Part shown: positions 4,812 to 53,491 of the stretch, piece by piece
Numbering within the stretch: position 1 is the first letter of the stretch
Layout: each line of letters opens with the position of its first letter
Assembly: GCA_905182525.1 (NCBI GenBank)
Contig: CAJJBV010000001.1
Span: 372,001-436,000, forward strand
DNA length: 64,000 nt
Direction: 5' to 3'
From: Cryomorphaceae bacterium
GTDB lineage: Bacteria; Bacteroidota; Bacteroidia; Flavobacteriales_D; Parvicellaceae
Notes under the pieces: generated by a model
What the model was told of the DNA's origin: nothing
Databases searched by the model: none
What the model saw: the letters and a program-made list of their open reading frames with translations, nothing else
Position numbers and translations under genes: made by a program

Positions 4812-6285
4812 TTAGTTGCTTTTTCTCCAACTGTTAGAGTTAGAAGGAAGAAAATAATCTTGAATTTTATCTGTTTTATTTATATGATAAATTGCAGCTA
4901 AACCAGCTTCATTATTATCAAATGAGGTATTATTTTTAAAGTCTTCTAAGTATAAACTCACAAAACTTGTATCAAAATTTCCTGATTTAAAATCAGAATG
5001 ATTTAAAGCGTAATAACAAAAAGGAAGTGTTGTTTTAACTCCATAAATAGTGTACTGTTCAATAGCCTTAATCATTTTTTCAATAGCCTCTTCCCTATTT
5101 TTACCATGAACTATTAATTTTGATATCATAGGGTCATAATATATAGAAACTTCAGACCCTACATGGGTACAGTCATCAACTCTGATGCCTTTTCCTAGAG
5201 GGAATTTCATACAACTCTATTACTCCAGTATCAGGCAAAAAATTATTGAATGGATCTTCAGCACAAACTCTAATTTCAATAGAATGACCATTAATTTTTA
5301 GATCTTTTTGAGAAATTCTTAAAGGATTTCCTTTAGCAATATTAATTTGTTCTTCTACTAAATCCAGACCTGTTATCATTTCAGTAACAGGATGTTCAAC
5401 CTGAAGACGAGTATTCATTTCTAAAAAATAAAAAGCATTGTTTTCAAAAATAAATTCAACAGTACCTGCCCCGTGGTAATTACAAGATCTTGCTACATTA
5501 CAAGCAGCTTCACCCATTTTATTTCTTAATTCATTAGAGATTAAAGAAGATGGTGCTTCTTCAATTACCTTTTGATGTCTTCTTTGAATAGAACAATCTC
5601 TTTCAAAAAGATGAATTACCTCTCCATACTGATCTGCCAAAATTTGAATTTCTATGTGTCTAGGTTTAGTGAGATATTTTTCTATGAAAACTGCACCATT
5701 TCCAAATGAATTTTTAGCCTCACTAACTGCTCTTTGCATTTGCTCTTTAAATTCATCTTTCTTATGAACAATTCTCATTCCTTTACCGCCTCCACCAGCA
5801 GATGCCTTAATTAATACTGGGAATCCAATTTTTTCTGCAGCATTCATTGCTAGGTTAACGTCTTTTATCTCCTCGTCTAAACCCGGTACTAAAGGAATGT
5901 CAAATTTTGAAACTGTTTTTTTAGCAGATAATTTATCTCCCATAACTTCAATAGACTTAGCAGATGGTCCGATGAAAATTATTCCGGCTTTAATAACTTT
6001 AGAAGCAAAAGCAGCATTCTCAGATAAAAATCCATACCCAGGATGAATAGCATCAACATTAATTTCAACAGCTTTTTGAATAATAAAATCTTGATTTAAA
6101 TAACTCAATTTGGAAGGAGCTGGACCAATTAAAATTTTTTCATCCGCATAACTTACAAACAGGGAATCTTTGTCAACTTCTGAAAATATAGCAACAGTTT
6201 TGATTTTTAACCTTTTACAAGTTCTCATCACTCTAAGTGCTATTTCCCCTCTATTTGCAACAAGTATTTTTTTAATCTCTGCCAT
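4812..6285 (-). CDS. accC: Biotin carboxylase subunit of acetyl/propionyl-CoA carboxylase, frame broken once
   Basis: ATP-dependent carboxylation of the biotin carrier, the first half-reaction of acyl-CoA carboxylase. The N-terminal 369 codons (from 6285) include [22 protein letters not shown] (the ATP-grasp glycine loop), FIEKYL and [14 protein letters not shown]. The frame is lost at 5196-5199, where CCC TCTA GGA carries one base too many. The remaining 132 codons continue the family exactly ([21 protein letters not shown]). Together they give the usual length of about 490 residues. Its start overlaps the folD stop by 14 nt, so ffh, folD and accC form an operon. No biotin carrier or carboxyltransferase gene is adjacent; accD lies at 27-28 kb. 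Confidence 0.88.
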
Positions 6286-7148
6286 TACAAGCCAAATATG
6301 TATTCATTAATAATGATGCAATTGTCATAGGACCTACTCCACCTGGAACTGGACTAATAAAAGAACAAACTGAAGAAACTTCATCAAATTTTACATCCCC
6401 AATTAAACGAAACCCATTTTTTTTAGAGTCATCTTCAATTCTATGAATACCAACATCAATTACTACAGCATTAGGCTTCACCATATCTAGAAGTGACAAA
6501 CTCTGGTATTCCAATTGCAGCAATTAAAATATCTGCTTTTAAACAAATATCTTTTAAATTTTGAGTTTTACTATGAGCTAAAGTAACTGTAGAATTACCT
6601 GGGTTACTCTTTCTAGACATTAAAATGCTCATTGGAGTACCAACAATACTACTTCTACCTATAACAACAGTATTTTTACCTTCAGTCTCAATGTTATATC
6701 TTTTCAATAATTCCATTATTCCATTTGGAGTCGCTGGTAAAAAAGTCGGTAATCCTAAAGTCATTTTTCCAACATTTTCAGGGTGAAAACCATCTACATC
6801 TTTTCTAGGATTTATAGCTAAAGTTATTTTATTATCGTCAATATGTTTTGGCAAAGGGAGCTGGACAATAAAACCATCAATTGAATTATCTCTATTTAAT
6901 GTGTCTATCAATTTTAAAAGTTCTGATTGACTTACATCTGCATTTAATTTATGAAGCGTAGATTTAAAGCCTATTTTCTCACAAGCTTTAACTTTAGCGT
7001 TAACATAGGTTCTACTTGCACCATCTTCACCAACAAGAATAGCTGCCAAATGCGGGGGAGTTTCCCCTTTTTTAACAAGTTTTTTAACTTTAGCACCCAA
7101 TTCATTTTGAATTTCTAAAGATGTTTTTTTTCCGTCTAATAATTCCAT
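6272..7148 (-). CDS. folD: Bifunctional methylene-THF dehydrogenase/cyclohydrolase FolD, frame broken once
   Basis: Interconverts 5,10-methylene-, methenyl- and 10-formyl-tetrahydrofolate using NADP. The first 225 codons contain the substrate-site stretch [13 protein letters not shown], then [17 protein letters not shown] and [12 protein letters not shown]. The frame slips at 6488-6491 (ACT TCTA GAT, one extra base). The other frame then continues with [13 protein letters not shown] and [10 protein letters not shown], the conserved C-terminal NADP-site motifs. The reconstructed protein is about 290 residues, normal for FolD. It starts 4 nt after the ffh stop and overlaps accC at its end. Confidence 0.92.
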
Positions 7149-9656: not shown

Positions 9657-10293
9657 GTGATGATCAAAATAATAACAATTCTTATAATTATATTTCCTTT
9701 AAATTTATTTTCTCAGGGTTTTGAAGGTTTAATCACATTCAATATCTCACATTCTAATATAGACTCTTCTAAAAAAGAATTTGATATTATGCCATCAAAA
9801 CTAGATTTTTATATTTCTGGGGAATTAGCAAGAGTTGACCAATTCACAAAAATTGGAATACAAACTACAATAATTGATACGCTTTCAAAAAAACATATTT
9901 TACTTATAAATTTGATGGAGAAAAAGTTTGGAATAATTTTAACAAATTTAGAGGACTCTAACGAAATAGAGAAAATAAGATACACTAATGAAATAGCTGC
10001 TTTTTCTAACCATAGAATGTAAAAAAGCAATCATAAATAATCTTAATTTATCAAACAATAGAACGTCCATTTCTACTGTTTACTACACTAACGAAATTAG
10101 TAATTCCTACAATGTAAACTTTAAAGGATTAAATGGTTTCCCTCTTAACTACGAAATTGTTTCAGAAAATATCATTTCAACTTATACCATAGTAGATTGT
10201 GTAAATAAGAAAATTGATCCGAAATTATTTGAAATAGATAAAAACACTTTGATATACACTATGGAAGACTTTAAAGCTTTAATGCATCAATAA
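9657..10293 (+). CDS. Exported protein of unknown function (DUF4412/GLPGLI-like), frame broken once
   Basis: A small secreted protein with a signal peptide at residues 1-19 (ending FSQG). The opening GFEGLITFNIS and the later GLNGFPLNYEI resemble the GLPGLI/DUF4412 group of Bacteroidota periplasmic proteins, whose function is unknown. The first frame ends at 10022. Removing one base at the TCT A site (10005-10008) joins it to a second open frame starting ECKKAIINN and running to a TAA at 10291-10293, giving about 211 residues. The join is supported because family members have a conserved 'CKKA' at this point. The gene precedes ftsK by 82 nt. Confidence 0.6.
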
Positions 10294-10375: not shown

Positions 10376-12857
10376 ATGACAACAAAAAATCAATATAAAA
10401 ACTTTCAATTCAACTCTTCAAACAAAAAAGATAAAAAAGAATATTTTTCGGGGATTAAAGCATTTTTTTCAGATGAAAGATTTCATAAAACCTCGGGGTT
10501 ATTTTTACTTCTTTTGTCTGTTTATTTATTTTTCTCCTTTTCATCCTATTTATTTACGTGGAAATACGACTTAAGCATAATTGACGGAAAGCCAATTAGT
10601 TTTGTGTTTAATGGTGAAGAAAGTAATATACAAAATTGGTTAGGGAAATTTGGTGCCTATACAGCTCATAAATTTTTAAAAGTTTGGTATGGATTGGCAT
10701 CTTATGTTTTTGTCTTTATTACGTTTATAATAGGGTTCAAAGCACTTTTTAATTATGAATTAATTCCAATTAAAAAAACTCTCAAAGTGAGTTTTATAAG
10801 TCTTCATTTGGATTTGCATTTTTCTAGGATTTGTATTTGAAAAATCTAACTTAGACTTCATGGGTGGCCTGTATGGTCAAGTTGTGAATAACTGGCTTAT
10901 TGGAGTTTTTGGCCAAATTGGTGCGGGGTTTTTTATTTTTTTCATAGGGGTTTCTTCAGTTGTTTTGCTCTTTAACCCTTCATTATCTTGGTTAGTTAAT
11001 TTCTTTAATTATTTATCTAAATATTTAAAAAAAGAAAAAGTAGAAAGTGACGGTTTTACAGAAGTATCTAAAGTAGATGATAATAGTGAGCTTGAATTGT
11101 CAAATAATAATGAAACTGTAAATTTAAAAACTAATGAAGTCGAAAATGAAATTCAATCTGACTCTAACAAAAGCTTAGATATTTCTAATGATTTGGAAAT
11201 GGATGTCACTATTAACGAGGAAAAAAGTCCCGTTAAAAATCCAGAAGACAAAACTGATATTGATATAGATTTAGCCGTGGAAGTACCAGAATCTGACACT
11301 GAATTAAGTAAAAAAGATATTGATAGAAAGGTAAAGGAATTTGGTGAATATGATCCAAAATTGGATTTATCTGAATATAAATTACCTAATATTGATTTAT
11401 TAGCTGAGCATGGAAGTGGTAATATTTCTGTAGATAAAGAAGAATTAGAGGGAAATAAAAATAAGATTATAGAAACACTTCTTAATTATAAAATAAATAT
11501 TTCGAAAATAAAAGCAACGATTGGACCTACTGTAACATTATATGAAATTATCCCAGCACCAGGAGTTAGAATATCGAAAATAAAAAATTTAGAAGACGAT
11601 ATTGCTCTTAGTTTAGCTGCTTTGGGCATTAGAATTATTGCTCCTATGCCAGGAAAAGGAACAGTAGGAATTGAAGTCCCTAATTCAAACCCCGAAATTG
11701 TTGCAATGAAATCCTTAATTGCTTCTGACAAGTTTCAAAATTCTACTATGGAATTACCAATTGCGTTAGGAAAAACAATTTCAAATGAATCTCTTATAGC
11801 TGATTTAACTAAAATGCCTCATTTATTGATGGCTGGAGCGACAGGTCAAGGTAAATCGGTAGGGTTAAATGCAATACTTATTTCACTGATTTATAAAAAA
11901 CATCCTTCACAAGTTAAGTTTGTATTAATAGATCCTAAAAAAGTAGAACTAACTATTTACAATAAAATTGAAAGACACTTTCTAGCAAAACTTCCAGACG
12001 AAGAAGAAGCTATAATAACGGACACTACAAAAGTTGTTAAAACTTTAAATAGCTTATGTGTAGAAATGGAAGCAAGATATGAGCTATTAAAAGAAGCAAT
12101 GGTACGTACTATAAAAGAGTACAATCATAAATTTGTTCAAAGAAAGCTAAATCCTGAAAAAGGTCATAAATACATGCCATATATTGTTCTAGTTATTGAC
12201 GAATTTGCAGACTTAATAATGACAGCTGGAAAAGAAGTTGAAACCCCAGTAGCTAGAATTGCTCAATTAGCTAGGGCTGTAGGAATCCATTTAATAATTG
12301 CAACACAAAGACCATCGGTTAATGTAATTACTGGAACAATTAAAGCAAATTTCCCAGCTAGAATAGCATTTAGAGTAACTTCAAAAATAGACTCTAGAAC
12401 AATATTAGATTCGGGTGGTGCAGACCAGCTAATTGGAAGAGGAGATATGTTATTTTCACCAGGCAATGAACTTATTAGATTACAATGTGGATTTGTAGAC
12501 ACACCAGAAGTTGATGCAATAGCTGATTTTATAGGATCACAACGAGGTTATCCAAGTGCATTTTTATTACCTGAATATATAGATGAAGCTAATGAACTTA
12601 AAGAATTAGATGATGATTTAGACAGTTTGTTTGAAGATGCTGCAGAAGTAATTGTAAATCATCAGCAAGGATCAGCATCATTACTACAGAGAAAACTTAA
12701 ATTAGGGTATAATAGAGCGGGTAGAATTGTTGATCAGCTAGAAGCAACTGGACTAATTGGTCCGCATAGAGGTAGTAAAGCAAGAGATGTGCTTATACCC
12801 GATGTTTTAGCACTAGAACAATTTTTAACTAATCTAAGAGAAAAAGGGAAATTATGA
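10376..12857 (+). CDS. ftsK: DNA translocase FtsK/SpoIIIE, frame broken once
   Basis: Septal ATP-driven DNA pump that clears and resolves chromosomes at division. The N-terminal frame (10376-10840) has four hydrophobic segments of the membrane anchor. It is then lost, and the reading resumes in the +1 frame with FEKSNLDFMGGLYGQ. The likely slip lies between 10799 and 10826, and TCTA at 10823-10826 lies in frame. The second part has an acidic linker, an alpha domain, the motor with Walker A GATGQGKS (about 11836-11860) and Walker B VLVIDEFADL. It ends in a winged-helix gamma domain (GSASLLQRKL, YNRAGRIVDQLE) for KOPS reading. lolA overlaps its stop by 4 nt. Confidence 0.93.
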
Positions 12858-15159: not shown

Positions 15160-17252
15160 TTACTTTAAAATTTGAATTTCAACTCTTCTATTAGCTCCTC
15201 TTCCCGTAGGATTATCAGAGCCATCTGCAGCAAGATTTTCTGCAATTGGATGATCCTCACCCATTCCAATAGTTTTAATTCTTTTATAATTCACTCCTCT
15301 GTTACACATGTAAGTTTTTACAGATTCAGATCTTAAAACTGAAAGAATTTGATTGTATTTAATTGAACCAGTATTATCGGTATGTCCAATAGAATTAATT
15401 GTCCAAGAAAGGTTATTTTTTAAATCCAGTATTAATTTGTCTAGTTTTAATTTCTCTTTATTAGAAAGTTCTGAACTTTCAGTTTTGAAATTAATATTTT
15501 TATAAAAAATAATATGTATTTCAGTATTAGTATCGACAATCGCGGTTTCTTCCTTAATAACTACAGGTTCAATAGTAGTTTCATTATTATCTATTAATAC
15601 TTCATCCGACATCTCTGACTCTTTTGTTATGTTTTCTAACTCCTCCAAGAAAACTAATTCATTAGTAGAAAAATCTATTGATTTAGAATAAAAGTAAAAT
15701 CCAGAATTCTCAGATGAAACATTTATTGTATCGTTTATAAAGTTAGAATCAATTTCAAACTTAATATTATAACTCTCACCGGGGTTTAAAACCAAAGTAA
15801 ACTTACCTGTAGAATCATTAGGTTGATAATTAGATGAAATATTATTATTACTTACAGTTATATTATAGTTTTTTAAAATCTCTCCTCTTTCGTTTTTAAG
15901 AATCCCTTTATATATTGACAAATTGGTTTCATCATTAAATGGCAAACTTATTTTATAAATATCATAATTACCTTTCCCTGTTTTCTTATTGAAGAAAAAT
16001 AAGCTGTTTTACCATCAACGCTTGGAGTGAAAAACAAATCGTCATTAACAGTATTTATGGGGTATCCCATATTAACTGGACTAGACCAATTTAAATCATT
16101 ATCTAAAATAGATTTAAAAATATCAAAACCACCAATAGTTTTATGACCAGTAGATGAAAAATATAGAGTTTTACCATCGGGATGGAAGTAAGGTGACTCT
16201 TCATCATATTCTGTATTAATAGGTTCACCTAAGTTCTCAGGTGAAGACCAAGAACCATTTGACATTTTTTTAATCATCCAAATATCTCTACCACCATAGC
16301 CTCCATCTCTGTCACTTACGAAAAACAATATATTCTTATGTAAATTCATATTTGCTGTTGTTTCCCAAAATTCAGAATTAACATTATTTTGTAAAAGATT
16401 GGGTTCATTCCAGTCACTCCCTTTTCGTTCAGACTCGTAAATACTTCTTCCTAGGGGTCCCAATTTAATATTATTATTTATCATGGAAGTAAGAATAAAT
16501 TCTCCATCAGGTGAAAAATATAAAGCTGAAGAACTGTGTTCTTTATTTAATGAACTTGAGCACAATTTAGACTTTGACCAAGAATTATTTAATTTATAGG
16601 AATAATATATATCTTCATAAAACCCACCTTGATCATCTTTAGATTCTAATAAATCTTTTGGTCTTTTGGTTGTAAAATACATTTCATTTTCTTCAGCATT
16701 AATTAATGGTCTATACTCTGAAAACTCTGTATTAATAGATGAAATTGAAGCTATTTTTAGATCCATTGTGTTTTTAACCATACTTTTTGCATACTTGGAT
16801 TTTCTTATCTTTCTATTTATAGATGTAATATCATCTAAATTAGCCTCTGATAAAAAGTTTTTATACAATACATACTTTTCAATAGCTTTATCAAATTCAT
16901 AATTCATATGATATGCATCTGCTAATAACTCAAAAACTTCTAAAGGAGAATTATCCTCTTTATGATTCGCAATTTTATAAGAAATTGTTAGGTGTTCAGA
17001 TGCTTTTTCATAATATGGAATTGCTTCACTTTCTCTTCCCTTGATACTCATCAAACAATTTCCAATTGAAAAACATGTATTAGAATTTTCAGGATCAATT
17101 TCATATAATTTTTCTAGAAGTGGTAATGCATTATCAAAATCATAAACCTCTAGAAAATAAAGCGATTCAAAATATAAATGTTTGAAAGATTGAGCGGTAT
17201 TTTCTTTATAAAAAATTAAAAAAGTAAATATTATTAAAAAATTATTTTTCAT
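15160..17252 (-). CDS. PorE-like TPR/PD40/OmpA protein of the type IX secretion system, frame broken once
   Basis: Outer-membrane-associated peptidoglycan-binding protein. The order of domains matches PorE of the type IX system: signal peptide (residues 1-20), TPR repeats (about 25-140), a PD40 beta-propeller (repeats such as DGEFILTS, DGGYGGRDIWM, DGKTLYFSSTGHKT), a carboxypeptidase-regulatory-like domain and a C-terminal OmpA domain (INSIGHTDNTGS, GMGEDHPIA, NRRVEIQI). The frame changes near 15976-15982, where one A seems to be missing from GGGAAAGG; the corrected reading GNYDIYKISLPF is the normal propeller end. The two open frames therefore belong to one gene of about 697 codons. The name PorE rests on architecture only. 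Confidence 0.8.
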
Positions 17253-29302: not shown

Positions 29303-31790
29303 TTAGAAAGGATAACCAATGCCCAAATTTAATTGTAAAGGGAAAAATTCTTTTCTTAAATTTCTACTTGAATTGAAAATCCAACTATTTTTATTATCGG
29401 GTAAGCCAGGATTTTTAATTGGGATTGCTAAATCAGCTCTTAAAATAAAAAACTCAAAATTAAATCTTAGTCCAAATCCAGCACCTACAGCTAAATCATC
29501 AATTGAAGTTTTCCAATTAAACTTACCCTCGGGCCTCAAAGAATCAAAGCCCATTAACCAAACATTTCCAAAATCGACAAATAAAGCACCTTCAACTAGT
29601 TCAGTAATTGGAAATCTTGTTTCTATATTTCCTTCAAATTTAATATCTCCAATTTTGTCAAAACGTTGGTTTGAATCATAAAAACTTCCAGGCCCAAGTG
29701 ACCTTGCTCTCCAAGCTCTTAAACTGTTAGATCCGCCAGCAAAAAAACTTTTCTCAAATGGAAGAGCTTGAATTAAGTTTTTTCTAGGGATTCCAATTCC
29801 AGAATAAAGACGATATACAATTTTTGAGCGATCAAATATTGGCTGATAGTAACGTAAGTCAACAGTTAATTTTTGAAAATGTGCATATCTGATTCCTAAA
29901 AAATCATAACTATTTGATGAAATGTTTTTTTCCTTGTTAGATAATTCATGAAATCTAAACAAACTACCGCCTGCTGATTCAAAAGTAGACTTTAAATAAA
30001 AAGAATTGGAATTATGATTTAAATCTTGGCCATTAAATTCAAAAGAAAATACCCCCCCAGCTACAACGTGATCTTGAAAACTAGCTAGAATATATTCATT
30101 ATCTAAAGTATTAATTAGAGATCTGAATGTCGAGTCTAAATTAAAATCTACTAGACTTATTAAAAGAGGATTTATGTGCCAAGTGGTTTTTTTTCTCTCG
30201 TGAAAAATCCACCCGAAAGAAAGCTCTTGATTTTTTCTATAAAAATCTGGTCTATTTTGAATATTATAAGCTCCAGTAAACTCAGTTGAAGGGTTAATAT
30301 GGTTCTTCAATCCCCCTAGTCTATTAATTAAAAAATACTTAGGTAATATAAAATGAAATTCTGGACCAAACTCAGTAGTATTTGGTCTAATTGATGAACT
30401 TGACTGTCTATTATCTGTTAAAAGCATTTGAATTTCAAAACTTCCCTTTAAAGAAAGTAAAAGTTTTTCTCCGCCGTGAAATAAGTTATTATGAGTGTAA
30501 TTTAAGCTACCTAATACTCCCAGTAATCTATCTTTATTGGTGCCATCGACCGAAAAGGAAAAATTTTGAACTTTAGACGGAGCTAATTCAATATTACTAA
30601 TTAAACTATTGTTAGCAATTGTATCAAAACTAATAGTTACATACTTAAAAAGACCTAATGAAATCAACCTTTTATATGAATTTTGAGCTAGTTCGTTTGT
30701 GTATAAATCTCCTTTTTTAAGAGCGTATAGATTTATTGAAAATCTTCTTTTTAAATGAAATAGGATTATAATTATAAATATATATTCCGGATTTAGAAAT
30801 ACTGTCAATATTTAGATCTGATTCTAAGTTTTGATTAGTTTTAATTTTAACATTTACTTTATTAATTGTAAACTGTTTATGATTAAGCTCATGAAAATTA
30901 TTAATAGTACTGTCAAGTTTTTTATAATTTTGAATGCCAAGAGTTAAATCAATGCGATTACTTAAGTTGTTGCTGTCAATATCAAAATATATAAATTCTT
31001 TATTAAAAAAATAAAAACCTCGATTTCTTAAAAAATCATTAATTCTATTTCTTTCAAATACTAAAAGATCAGTGTCAAAAATTTCTCCTTTTTTAAAACT
31101 GGAGGTTGATTCTATAGTATCTAAATAATTTAAAATTAGTTTATCATCACATTTATACTTTACAGAATTTAAAAAAGTTGGATTGCCTAATTTTATATAG
31201 TAACGCAACTCTATTTGTTTCTTTTTTTTTAGATAAAATATAGAATCTAAAACTGTAGAATTGAAAAAACCTTTATTAAATAAAAAAGTTTTTATTTGGT
31301 CTTTAGAGCGATTAGCTTTTAAAGGACTATAGATTACAGGAGGCTCCCCTTTGTTTCGGATTCTTTCCCCTAAAACTAATTTTCTTGTTTTAAGAGTTTT
31401 TATAGGTAATGTACTGTCAATGCTTAAAATCTTTTCATTTTTAAGATTTATTTTTTTATTTGCAATGTCAATTTTTGATTGTTTTTTTATTACTTTATTG
31501 TCGATTCGTTTTTGACTTGTTAGATTATAGAGACTAAGATGAAAATTATAGTTTGATAAAATTTCAAGATTAGGTTTTTGATTTAAAAGTTCAAATAATT
31601 CTTCTTCTTGAAAATTAATTGAATAATTATGTTCTAAAATTTCAATGTTTTCTTTTCTCAATAGTAACTCATCATCAGCCACGTACTTACATAAGTTGCA
31701 TGAGTTTAAAAAAATTAATAAAATGATTAAAATAAAATTATGTGAAAATTTATATTTTAAAATTCTTACTATATTCATCTTATCCTTCAC
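29303..31790 (-). CDS. BamA/TamA-family outer-membrane protein, frame broken once
   Basis: Outer-membrane 16-strand barrel with periplasmic POTRA domains, of the TamA-like type, probably inserting or translocating envelope proteins. The N-terminus has a lipoprotein-like signal (FLNSCNLCKYVADDE). POTRA segments follow (IKTFLFNKGFFNSTV, INDFLRNRGFYFF). The frame is lost at 30728-30731 (AAA TCTA TAC) and resumes with YALKKGDLYTNE. The second frame is the barrel, with FFAGGSNSLRAW near its end and a terminal aromatic (GYPF). Its upstream limit is uncertain: a GTG at 31790 or an ATG at 31778. Reconstructed length is about 828 residues. Confidence 0.82.
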
Positions 31791-40576: not shown

Positions 40577-41745
40577 TTATATTATTTTAGCATAAATTTC
40601 AAGATAGCTTTCCACACCTTTTTCAAGCGAAAAATAATCCTTTGCACCTCTTACAATTTTATTTTCATCAAATACATTATTAAGTAATGATTCTATATTT
40701 AATTTTTTACCCATTTCAAATATGGTTCCAGAATCATATTTCTTAACTATATTATCCACATCACCAACTCCACTATTACAAATAATTGGTATACCCATTG
40801 CCATAAGCTCGCCTTGTTTAGTAGGCGAAGAAAATATTTTACTGAAAGTAGGCATGATAAAACATAATGAGAAATTCCAGTTTCTAGTATTAAATGGTAT
40901 ATCTTCTCTTCACTTTCTTCACATATGAATAGTTTTTCGACTAATTCCTAAGTTCTTACAATGAGTAAAATTATTTCTGAGTCATCTTTTGTTAAAACAT
41001 GAAATTTAGAGTTAGGTATTTTTTCTTTAATCTTTTGGAAAAAAACTAACATTTCTCTAACCAAATACCATGTCCCTAAAGAACCTAAATAACCAATTGT
41101 AAAACTATCAGAGTCACGTTTAACTGGCTTAAATAGACTTTAAATCTGTACAACAAGGAATTACTGAAATATTACTTTCTAAGTGAGTAAAACTTGATAT
41201 TTTAAGAATGTTTTTCTTTCCATTATGAGTTAAAGAGATTATATGACTTGATTCAAGTAAAAATTGTTTTTCCTTCCTTTTAAAGTAAAAATAAACTAGT
41301 TTATAGAACGGATTTTTAAGGTTCCATAAACCTCCTTCAACTCGTTCATCAGCCCAAAATCCTCTCATATCAAATAAAAAAGGAATACCATACAATCTTT
41401 AAATTTTAACCCAACAAGCGATGAAATATAGCTTCTGCAGTGAATAAGTGAAAATCCATGTTTAATATGAAGTTCTTTAGCTAGTTTCTTCATTTTATAA
41501 AAATCAAAAATAGTAGAAAGAAATGGAGGTTTTTTATTATATCTTAAAGGATACCATTGAATGTTGTTTTCTAGACATATTTTTTCAATTAAAGAATGAT
41601 TTTCAGTATATCTGTCTGGCTTTTCAAAACTTACCAAATGAAAATTATAATTTTCTTTAGTTAAATTTATAATATAAGGTAAAACTTGTGATTGTCCTAA
41701 AGGATCAGTCATACCATCATAAGAAAGATATAAAATGCTTTTCAA
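40577..41745 (-). pseudogene. Family 4 glycosyltransferase 2, broken by several single-base shifts
   Basis: A GT-B glycosyltransferase whose N-terminus SILYLSYDGMTDPLGQSQ is characteristic of a surface-polysaccharide group in Bacteroidota. The frame shifts near 41390 (one base missing, into LYGIPFLFDMRGFWADE), at 41134-41137 (AAG TCTA TTT, one extra base, into LFKPVKRDSD) and two to three times between 40860 and 40980. The end SSPTKQGELMAMGIPIICN with GVGDVDNIV is the sugar-nucleotide site. The start is uncertain: TTG at 41745, or upstream at a leaderless ATG (41777) if another base is missing. Confidence 0.6.
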
Positions 41746-44879: not shown

Positions 44880-45937
44880 ATGATATCTACTGACTACAAA
44901 AATATATTTCTACTAAAAAAAACTCAACTTGATGAAGTTGATATTGAGCTTTACAAGTTTCTAGAATTTTGGAAATCAAGCAAAAAAGAAACTGTAGTAA
45001 TTACATCTGGATCAACCGGATTGTCAAAGAAAATTAAAATTTCTAAAAAACAGATAGAAAATAGCGCAAAATCTACTATTTCTCATTTTAAAATAAAAGA
45101 AAAATCTACTTTTTTAATATGCTTACCTGTAAAGTATATAGGAGGTAAAATGATGCTAATAAGAGCTATAATTTCAAAAGCTAAAATTATACTTTACAAA
45201 CCTTTAGCAAATCCTTTTATAGAGTTAAATGATAATATTGATTTTATTGCATTAACTCCATTACAACTTTTCAACGTAGCTAAAAACAAAAAAAACTTTG
45301 ATAAAATAAAGTTAGCTATTATTGGAGGAGGGGAAATATCTAATCAACTCATTTTAGAGTTGCAAAACATATCTACTAACTGTTATCAAACATATGGAAT
45401 GACAGAAACGATTTCTCATATTGCAGTAAGAAATCTAAAGAACTGTAACGATAAAACTCCATACAAGTGCTTAGATAATATATCCATTGATACAAATCAA
45501 AACAATCAACTTATTATTAACTCTGAGCAACTAAATCTTAAAAATCTTCTTACTAATGACATTGTTGAAATAATTAATGAAAAGAGAATTTATTTATTTG
45601 GGGAGAAAGGATAATATCATTAATTCTGGAGGGTTAAAAATAAATCCAGAAGATGTTAGAAAATGAAATTCAAAAATCTTTGGGCAGCACAAATTTTTAT
45701 ATTGATAAAATTAAAAATGAAAAATTAGGAGAAGAGGTTGTTTTGATAGCATTGTTAGATTTAAAACTAGATTCATTAATAAAATCGATTAATACAATAA
45801 AAGATAAAAACACACGTCCAAAGAAGGTTTTTTTTACCGATAAGTTTTTTCACAATGAAAATCAAAAATTAGATAGAGTAAAAAGCAAAAAATATGCTCT
45901 TAATTTAAATAAATCCTTTTCCTTAGCAAAAAAATAA
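44880..45937 (+). CDS. menE: o-Succinylbenzoate-CoA ligase-like AMP-forming enzyme MenE, frame broken twice
   Basis: Adenylate-forming ligase activating o-succinylbenzoate with CoA. The first frame has VITSGSTGLSKKI (the AMP/ATP loop, residue 42), ALTPLQLF and YQTYGMTETISH. It is then lost near 45600-45610 (an extra base in GGGG) and again near 45656 (GTTA-GAA). The corrected frame continues with GRKDNIINSGGLKINPED and the small C-terminal domain (LGEEVVLIALLD). With both shifts undone it has about 350 residues, short but normal for the Bacteroidota MenE. The menC-menE context is the best support. Confidence 0.82.
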
Positions 45938-48794: not shown

Positions 48795-51042
48795 TTAGAA
48801 CCTTAGCTTAAGACCTAAAAAGAAGTTAATTCCAGCTTGATTATAAGCACCAATCATATTATACCTTCCATTATTTGAATCTTCTGTATTTACATAAGGA
48901 TCAGAAGTTGCATAAGAACCAGCTTGAAACCTATATATCCAAGCATTAGAAATATAATTTTGGTTCAATAAGTTTCTCACCCATGAACTTATCACAACTT
49001 CTTTGAATAATTTTGTTTTAAAACAGTAATTAATTCTAAAATCATGGACAAAATAATCATCTAATCTTCCGAATTCACTAGATGTATTATCAAATATTGT
49101 TCTCCAACATATTTACTAACCAAAGCTAAATCTAACTTACCTTTATCACTAGAATTAAATGGGGTGAAAATCAATTGCCCTCCTCCTATTATTGAAGGAG
49201 AAAAAGCAATATTGGTATTTTCATGAGATTCTTCAACTTGAGCTTCTAAGTCCCAATCATCTATAAACTCAGTAAATTCAACAATTTTATTTTGACTTAA
49301 TGTAGAATTAAACCTTAAATTAACTTCTCATTAATCTTTATAGCAGCTGTTAATTCTAATCCTCTTCTAAAACTATTGGGGACATTTATTCTAATTGGCG
49401 AACCTACATCGTTAACATTACCAGTAAGTATTAACTGATTCTTATACTGCATATTATATAAATTAGCAATCAAACTGACTCTAGTTGAGTTATATCGGTA
49501 TCCAAATTCTATATCCAGCATGTTTTCATGAGTTGGTGTATTAATAGATTCAGTAATATCTGTCCTATTTGGCTCTTTATTACCAATTCCAGCAAAACCA
49601 TATAAACTTGAATTTTTATCTACTGTATAGTTGAAACCTACTTTTGGATTGAAAAAATTCATATTTATTGTGTCGTTTACTGAAACATTCCCCTCTTCCA
49701 AACCGGAAAGCTTATAATCAACAAAACGGTATTGTAAATCTAAATAGGCACTAACTTTAGAGTTTAAATTATAATTTAATTTTCCAAAAAAGTTAACATC
49801 AGTCTTAACAGCATCATTATCGTAATACCTATGTCTTATTTGTCCATTACTAGCATGTTGAGCCCATACTACTTCACCATAATGCGCCACCTATATATTG
49901 ATTGGCACCTCCACCTAAAATGAATTGAAAATTATCTGCATTATATTTTGCAGAGTATACAATACCATAGAAATGATTGTCCAACAATTTTCTAGAAATT
50001 ATATCTGAAGTAGATATTTCGAGTGTATCTAATGGAAAAGTATAAACTAATATTATTCAAATTATAATCTGAAAGCTGTCTCATCTTCTTTATAACTTTC
50101 GTAATAACCAATACCCCTAGTATAATGTAGAGAAGCATTTAATTTTAATCTTTTAGACGGTTTATTTGTAAAGTGTAATTGATAATGAGTTTGTTGTAAT
50201 TATCAATCTTATTTTCATAAGTATATGGATTGAAAGTTTTGTTAGTATCCAAAACTTGCAATGGAGTTCCCTCCCATGCCTGGTAAGTTTTTTCATGTCC
50301 AGAGAAAACTACTGCTTGAATGGATGTTTTTTCTCCTAAATAACTTCCAGATAAATAATAAGAATTAAGATCTGAATAAGCTCTGTCAATAAAACCATCT
50401 GAAGTTAACTCTAGACAATCTTCCTTCAAAATTCCATTTTCCGTCAATTAATCCAGTTCCCAGCTTAATGGTATTTTTAAGTGTATTAAAAGAACCATAA
50501 CTATTAGAAATTTCTCCATATGGTTTGGTGGCGTTTATCGTACTTAATGTACTCAAGTTTAAACTTGCCCCAAAAGCCGAAGCTCCAGTGGTAGATGCTC
50601 CTACTCCTCTTTGAATTTGAATATCGTCTGTAGACGAAGAAATATCTGGCATATTTACCCAAAAAACTCCTTGAGATTCAGCATCATTAAACGGAATACC
50701 ATTAATGGTAACATTTACTCTTGTTGCATCAGAACCTCTAACACGAATTCCTGTGTATCCAATACCAGCTCCAGCGTCTGAGGTGGTAACTACAGAAGTA
50801 GCCTGATCTAAAAGAATAGGCAAGTCCACTCCATGATTATTTACTTCAATTTCTTCTTTAGAAATATTCTCGTGAGCAACTGGGCTTTTTTCACCTACTC
50901 TAGTTGTGGTTACTTCAAATTCATCCAGAGTTGTTTTAATGGAATCTGTTTTTGAAGAAGTTGGTAAAAATATATTTGCTTGTCCTTGATAATTTAAAAT
51001 ACCAAAAACACCAATAGTTAAAAATAGATAATTGTATTTCAT
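48795..51042 (-). pseudogene. TonB-dependent receptor controlled by a TPP riboswitch, broken by about seven single-base shifts
   Basis: Outer-membrane active transporter, by its riboswitch probably for thiamine. The first frame (from 51042) carries a signal, a plug domain (IRVRGSDATRVNVTINGIPFNDAE in parts) and QRGVGASTTGASAFG. Reading continues only with shifts: near 50410 (GTTA-ACT, +1), 50180 (an A missing), 50068 (GAGA-CAG, +1), 50035 (TTTT, +1), 49890 (+1), 49325 (-1) and 49095 (-1). The parts add up to a full receptor ending GLKLRF. After correction no nonsense codon remains. Decay or poor base calls cannot be distinguished from sequence alone. Confidence 0.85.
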
Positions 51043-52302: not shown

Positions 52303-52370
52303 GATTAGTTTCTAAAAAGCGAATATATAAACATTATCAAAATTTAATATTCAAATTGTTCAATCCTTTA

Positions 52371-52832: not shown

Positions 52833-53491
52833 AACCTCGTCAGAAAATAATTTTGATATAGTTGGAGATGATCACGTTAGTAATTCTTGTGAAACTCCTA
52901 TTAGAAAAGATGCTTTTGACATCTCTAATGAAAAGAAAAAAGAGATTATTGCAGAACATTTTAAAGTGATTATGGAGACTCTTGGTCTTGACTTAACAGA
53001 TGACTCTTTAAAAGGAACTCCGCACAGAGTGGCCAAAATGTACGTTGAAGAAATATTTTCTGGTCTTGACCCTGCCAATAAGCCAAAAGCTGCTTTATTT
53101 GAAAATAAGTATAAATATAATGAAATGCTTGTAGAAAAAAATATTACTTTTTATTCAAATTGCGAGCATCATTTTGTTCCAATATTTGGAAAAGTACATG
53201 TTGCTTACATGTCTTCTGGAAAAGTTATAGGGCTTTCTAAAATCAATAGAATAGTAGATTATTTTGCAAGACGCCCTCAAGTACAAGAAAGATTAACCAA
53301 TCAAATTGGGAATGATTTAAAAGAAATTTTAGGAACAGAGCGATGTCGCTGTTATCATTGATGCAAAACATCTTTGTGTTTCATCTAGAGGAATAAAAGA
53401 CGACACTTCTACTACTACCACTTCGTATTATTCAGGAAAATTTAAAAATGATTCTACTAAAAAAGAATTTCATCACTATTTAAACTCATGA
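52795..53491 (+). CDS. folE: GTP cyclohydrolase I, frame broken once
   Basis: Converts GTP to dihydroneopterin triphosphate. The core frame has GLDLTDDSLKGTPHRVAKM, FYSNCEHHFVPIFGKVHVAYM (zinc Cys-His) and GLSKINRIVDYFARRPQVQE. It is lost near 53340 (ACA GAGC GAT, one extra base), and the correct ending DVAVIIDAKHLCVSSRGIKD (second zinc cysteine) follows in the other frame to a TGA at 53489-53491. The length is about 232 residues. Its stop overlaps the SRPBCC start (ATGA). It is the second gene of the pterin-photolyase operon. Confidence 0.92.

What the first reader, a model, noticed from the sequence alone, without database searches (positions are those of the whole stretch)
5196..5199. Six +1 frameshift sites share TCT-A in the same reading phase
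In accC (5196-5199), folD (6488-6491), ftsK (10823-10826), the DUF4412-like gene (10005-10008), the TamA-like gene (30728-30731) and glycosyltransferase 2 (41134-41137) the frame-0 codon at the break is TCT followed by A. One base later the codon would be CTA. Other sites are CTTA (gcvT) and GTTA (menE, TonB receptor, GT1). Such repetition is unexpected for random errors. It may be a sequence-specific base-calling bias, e.g. at a modified motif, or, less likely, programmed +1 slippage of the ribosome.
Basis: partly seen in the sequence, partly recalled or inferred. Interest (0 to 1): 0.65.

Follow-up and report, generated by a model that had tools for sequence, protein, structure and literature searches.

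The report
Scattered indel errors, no shared motif
The broken genes are best explained by stray one-base insertions and deletions in an error-prone genome assembly; the apparent shared TCTA signature mostly disappears when each break is placed against intact relatives, so this is most likely an ordinary artefact rather than a new way of reading genes.

Summary
The frame breaks are real features of the assembled sequence; a shared TCT-A signature is not established. Placed against same-genus relatives, only two of the six claimed sites lie at TCT-A: folD (clear) and accC (best placement, small margin). The ftsK break is 21 nt upstream, GT2 6 nt upstream, TamA one codon downstream, DUF4412 mostly 3-9 nt upstream in or beside a T5 run. 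The breaks are not all +1: of 56 placed in 856 kb of this genome, 39 are +1, 13 are -1, 4 are +/-2, strongly clustered by position. Syntenic contigs of six relatives show 2 breaks in about 221 kb aligned, against 22 in 58 kb here; a seventh shows 64 in 78 kb. 936 aligned in-frame TCT-A codons are read without a shift. TCTA marks 3 of 13 +1 breaks in the window, where the word was chosen, and 2 of 26 outside (0.90 expected, P=0.23). Best explanation: residual indel errors of a probably long-read metagenome assembly. A weak sequence bias at TCTA or CTAG cannot be excluded.

The parts
5193..5202 (-). accC, +1 break interval, holds the claimed TCTA
   Evidence: 7 relatives; best junction at TCT|A
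6485..6491 (-). folD, +1 break at TCT|A
   Evidence: 7 relatives
9996..10014 (+).
10805..10808 (+). ftsK, +1 break, 21 nt upstream of the claimed junction
   Evidence: 6 relatives
15978..15983 (-). -1 break
   Evidence: 4 relatives
30719..30725 (-). TamA-like (Omp85/POTRA) gene, +1 break, one codon downstream of the claimed junction
   Evidence: Pfam
40909..40921 (-). -1 break
   Evidence: 2 relatives
40966..40971 (-). -1 break
   Evidence: 2 relatives
   Evidence: 2 relatives
41395..41400 (-). -1 break
   Evidence: 2 relatives
45585..45588 (+). +1 break
   Evidence: 1 relative placed it
   Evidence: 2 relatives
   Evidence: 3 relatives
49315..49323 (-). -1 break, same gene
   Evidence: 2 relatives
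49882..49885 (-). +1 break, same gene
   Evidence: 3 relatives
50073..50079 (-). +1 break, same gene
   Evidence: 1 relative
50190..50195 (-). -1 break, same gene
   Evidence: 3 relatives
50400..50409 (-). +1 break, same gene; interval holds GTTA; a TCT-A codon just before it is read in frame
   Evidence: 3 relatives
52308..52310 (-). -1 break, weak support
   Evidence: 1 relative
53341..53344 (+). +1 break
   Evidence: 4 reference proteins

Best explanation
The breaks are residual one-base insertion and deletion errors in the consensus of this metagenome-type assembly (2.19 Mb in 6 contigs, a marine Flavobacteriales close to MED-G20), probably from long reads at locally low coverage or with poor polishing. 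In the cell the genes are intact and read normally. TCTA recurs because the word is common in this AT-rich genome and because the breaks were placed by eye, up to seven codons from where they are. Shown: mixed signs, clustering by position, near absence from six of seven relatives, TCT-A read without a shift elsewhere, no robust motif. Inferred: the sequencing technology, the coverage, and that the genome is a MAG; reads and metadata were not available.
For: 39 +1, 13 -1, 2 +2 and 2 -2 breaks among 56 placed. One TonB-receptor-like gene alone has three -1 and three +1 breaks. Break density varies strongly by position (chi-square 110, 20 df); 15 of the 56 lie in about 7 kb of C3. Syntenic contigs of G003, G001, G005, G006, G007, G008 give 0, 0, 0, 0, 1, 1 breaks in about 221 kb aligned; G000 gives 22 in 57.7 kb of a 68-kb stretch, G010 64 in 78 kb. 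accC orthologues have open frames in 8 of 10 same-genus genomes, in the other two only a paralogue-level match was listed. 936 aligned in-frame TCT-A codons are passed without a shift. accC, folD and ftsK are housekeeping genes (general knowledge), unlikely to be lost together.
Against: Homopolymers are not enriched at breaks (runs of 4 or more in 10 of 46, 12.9 expected; runs of 5 or more in 1 of 46, 4.6 expected), and insertions outnumber deletions three to one, unlike the homopolymer-dominated errors described for long reads in PMC12007338 (passages; the same passages do report insertions not tied to homopolymers). A nominal TCTA excess remains over all +1 breaks (5 of 39, 1.16 expected, P=0.005). 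No reads or second assembly of this species were seen.
Confidence: 0.93

Rival explanations
1. Sequence-specific base-calling bias: a modified or otherwise difficult motif around TCTA or CTAG causes a false extra base at a small fraction of its occurrences.
For: TCTA in 5 of 39 +1 breaks against 1.16 expected (P=0.005); 2 of 21 narrowly placed breaks outside the window against 0.37 (P=0.05). TCTAG 3 against 1.0 (P=0.07), CTAG 4 against 1.7 (P=0.095) near 46 breaks.
Against: Outside the window, with all intervals, 2 of 26 against 0.90 (P=0.23). The most frequent word is no more frequent than in random draws (P 0.66 and 0.35). 209 in-frame TCT-A codons in the window itself are unbroken. CTAG and TCTA counts in the genome are near expectation. 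It would also leave most breaks, including the -1 breaks, unexplained.
Confidence: 0.05
2. Programmed +1 slippage or four-base reading at UCU-A during translation.
For: folD fits TCTA read as one Ser codon in 7 of 7 alignments and accC is compatible; +1 breaks exceed -1 breaks.
Against: -1 and +/-2 breaks occur; the claimed TCT-A is not at the break in ftsK, GT2, and probably TamA and DUF4412; 936 aligned TCT-A codons are read normally, 606 of them opposite Ser; syntenic genes of six relatives are almost free of breaks; the two tRNA-Ser genes found in the part searched (GGA and TGA) have ordinary seven-base anticodon loops (39% of the genome less the window's own scan, which found no tRNA).
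Confidence: 0.01
3. Real frameshift mutations in a decaying or unusually mutated strain.
For: Some genes that are not obviously essential (TonB-receptor-like, glycosyltransferase-like) carry several breaks.
Against: Housekeeping genes are broken too; both sides of breaks stay close to relatives (0.93/1.00 at folD, 1.00/1.00 at 53340); only 9 of 94,257 aligned codons are in-frame stops (the aligner penalises stops, which lowers this count).
Confidence: 0.01

Closest known systems
Gene-fragmenting indel errors in long-read assemblies (Kastor, PMC12007338; listing and passages seen)
   Same: Single-base insertions and deletions that break genes which are intact in reference genomes; the passages report insertion errors not tied to any particular homopolymer.
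   Different: Here homopolymers are not enriched and insertions exceed deletions; the technology is not known.
G010, a same-genus genome whose contig C5 matches a FRAM18_bin195 record by length; the FRAM18 data set includes PacBio HiFi assemblies by metaFlye (PMC8254474, passages seen)
   Same: Frame breaks of both signs, 64 in 78 kb.
   Different: Denser; 0 of 29 +1 breaks at TCTA, 0.63 expected. The passages seen do not say which MAGs are PacBio; inferred from contiguity.
Programmed +1 frameshifting such as bacterial prfB or yeast Ty1 CUU-AGG (recalled, no call)
   Same: A +1 shift at a short word; CTTA in the gcvT interval resembles the Ty1 word.
   Different: Those are single conserved sites with defined stimulators; here sites are many, unconserved in relatives and of both signs.

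Membership tests
Assembly indel errors | Breaks of both signs | tested here: met
   39 +1, 13 -1, 4 +/-2
Assembly indel errors | Breaks specific to an assembly, absent from syntenic genes of relatives | tested here: met
   2 in about 221 kb in six relatives against 22 in 58 kb; a seventh, G010, is also error-rich
Assembly indel errors | Clustering by position along contigs | tested here: met
   chi-square 110, 20 df
Assembly indel errors | Homopolymer association, usual for long reads | tested here: not met
   29 of 46 with runs of 3 or more (29.3 expected), 10 of 46 with 4 or more (12.9), 1 of 46 with 5 or more (4.6); typical but not defining
Assembly indel errors | Bases absent from accurate reads | not testable with these tools
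   no reads available
Programmed +1 frameshifting or quadruplet decoding | Breaks of one sign only | tested here: not met
   13 -1 breaks
Programmed +1 frameshifting or quadruplet decoding | A common shift word at the breaks | tested here: not met
   TCTA in 5 of 39 +1 intervals; 2 of the 6 claimed sites hold up
Programmed +1 frameshifting or quadruplet decoding | Site conserved in relatives | tested here: not met
   relatives read through the same places in one frame
Programmed +1 frameshifting or quadruplet decoding | Altered decoding tRNA | tested here: inconclusive
   two tRNA-Ser genes with ordinary loops in the part searched; 61% of the genome not searched
Modified-motif base-calling bias | A word enriched at breaks in data not used to choose it | tested here: inconclusive
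   outside the window 2 of 26, P=0.23; narrow intervals 2 of 21, P=0.05; no k-mer passes the maximum-statistic test
Modified-motif base-calling bias | Modification of the motif in signal data | not testable with these tools
   no signal data

The most novel reading that the evidence does not exclude
A small number of TCT-A sites, such as folD and accC, really carry the extra base in the genome, and this lineage tolerates it by occasional +1 slippage or four-base reading at UCUA, while the remaining breaks are assembly errors.
Probability: 0.01. Interest if true: 0.8.

Novelty: not a real feature. Interest (0 to 1): 0.06.

Why it matters
If real, a bacterium that reads housekeeping genes through frequent +1 shifts would be remarkable. 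As it stands it is a caution: broken genes in this genome, and in relative G010, should not be read as pseudogenes, recoding or gene loss without independent reads, and motifs read off break sites by eye need placement against homologues first.

Tried and rejected
Rejected: TCT-A as the common break site; an unusual genome-wide count of CTAG or TCTA (near expectation); homopolymer errors as the main type; the looser pattern N-Y-T-A (12 of 39 against 7.8; outside the window 6 of 26 against 5.9) and the pattern TCT/CTT/GTT-A, which is strong in the window where it was chosen (6 of 13 against 0.6) but not outside (3 of 26 against 2.1).

Led nowhere: in a first nucleotide alignment of accC and folD four of eight relatives were in the wrong orientation; only the other rows were used. 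A first break list of 53 used fewer references and no strict filter and includes weak calls; the filtered list replaces it. Rfam found nothing in the window. Paper searches were seen as listings only and nothing is taken from them.

Dropped before counting: 6 of 63 break clusters supported only by G010 (itself error-rich) were dropped, and 1 of the remaining 57 is not in the table of 56; break calls with local identity under 45%, or fewer than 9 aligned codons, on either side were not counted. In one search, 6 of 52 +/-1 breaks with long intervals were left out. About 856 kb of 2.19 Mb was held, of which about 283 kb aligned to references; most references outside the window come from one relative, G003. 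Aligned-base counts can count both strands (for G008 the count exceeds the contig length).

Full report
What the window is. The window is C1:372001-436000 of a 2.19-Mb, 6-contig genome, 96% complete. Close relatives are marine Flavobacteriales, two of them named Bacteroidetes bacterium MED-G20. accC orthologues (77-84% identity) have open frames in 8 of 10 same-genus genomes, one of them at a contig end; in the other two only a paralogue-level match was listed.

Where the breaks are. I aligned reference proteins of same-genus relatives to the genome with a frameshift-aware aligner and scored the possible junctions around each break. folD breaks at TCT|A in 7 of 7 alignments, opposite a residue that is Ser in 5 of 7 relatives. 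accC breaks best at TCT|A in 8 of 8, but the next junction is only 1-4 points worse. DUF4412 is loosely placed over 19 nt that include a T5 run; 5 of 6 alignments prefer 3-9 nt upstream, 1 of 6 prefers 3 nt downstream. ftsK breaks 21 nt upstream of the claimed junction in 6 of 6; the TCTA there lies in the shifted frame, within codons read as Phe-Leu-Gly. GT2 breaks 6 nt upstream in 2 of 2, and TamA one codon downstream in 4 of 4, by a modest 4-5 points. At the TonB-receptor-like break near 50400 a TCT-A codon is read in frame, as in relatives, shortly before the break.

Signs and distribution. In 856 kb of this genome (about 283 kb aligned), 63 break clusters were found; 6 supported only by error-rich G010 were dropped and 56 of the remaining 57 were placed: 39 +1, 13 -1, 2 +2, 2 -2. 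In the window, 13 are +1 and 8 are -1. Density varies strongly by position (chi-square 110 on 20 df).

Controls in relatives. The same procedure on syntenic contigs gave 0 breaks in G003 (56,934 nt), 0 in G001 (54,129), 0 in G005 (45,618), 0 in G006 (21,222), 1 in G007 (24,513) and 1 in G008 (18,756), against 22 in 57,681 nt of a 68-kb stretch that holds the window; G010 gave 64 in 78,114 nt, of both signs (G010 was not used as a reference there). So the breaks belong to particular assemblies, not to the genus. That G010 and the present genome are long-read assemblies is inferred from contiguity.

Is TCTA special? In-frame TCT-A is 1.0% of aligned codons; 936 are passed without a shift, and 606 are opposite Ser; 209 are in the window. 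TCTA falls in the junction interval of 5 of 39 +1 breaks (1.16 expected, P=0.005), 3 of 13 in the window (0.25, P=0.004), 2 of 26 outside (0.90, P=0.23), and 2 of 21 outside with narrow intervals (0.37, P=0.05). The window is the discovery set. Some word reaches the count of TCTA in 66% of random draws for all breaks and 35% for narrow ones. G010 has 0 of 29, with 0.63 expected, so it adds little. Strand-collapsed k-mers near 46 breaks show no word that passes a maximum-statistic test, CTA is at expectation, and homopolymers are not enriched. A weak TCTA or TCTAG residual cannot be excluded, but it is not established.

Mechanism. The best explanation is residual one-base consensus errors in a probably long-read metagenome assembly. 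Programmed slippage is contradicted by the -1 breaks, by six breaks of both signs in one gene, by near absence from six relatives, by the many TCT-A codons read normally, and gets no support from the two tRNA-Ser genes seen, which have ordinary anticodon loops. Real gene decay is unlikely because housekeeping genes are broken while both sides stay close to relatives. The lack of homopolymer association and the excess of insertions are unexplained details that reads would settle.

Noticed in passing
G000:C3 about 290145-296797 (L224): 15 of the 56 placed breaks lie in under 7 kb, all seen with proteins of one G003 stretch (L209), of +1, -1 and +/-2 types: a local low-quality patch.
   Followed up: partly
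G010:C5 70001-157847 (L170-L174): 64 break clusters of both signs in 78 kb aligned: its genes should not be used as intact references.
   Followed up: partly
G011:C3 1933536-1934616 (L017): The best accC-like match of this same-family, 5-contig genome is also split, with stops in the second piece.
   Followed up: no
placed +/-1 breaks of G000 (window and C1-C4 stretches): Insertions outnumber deletions three to one and homopolymers are not enriched, an unusual error profile whose cause is not known.
   Followed up: partly
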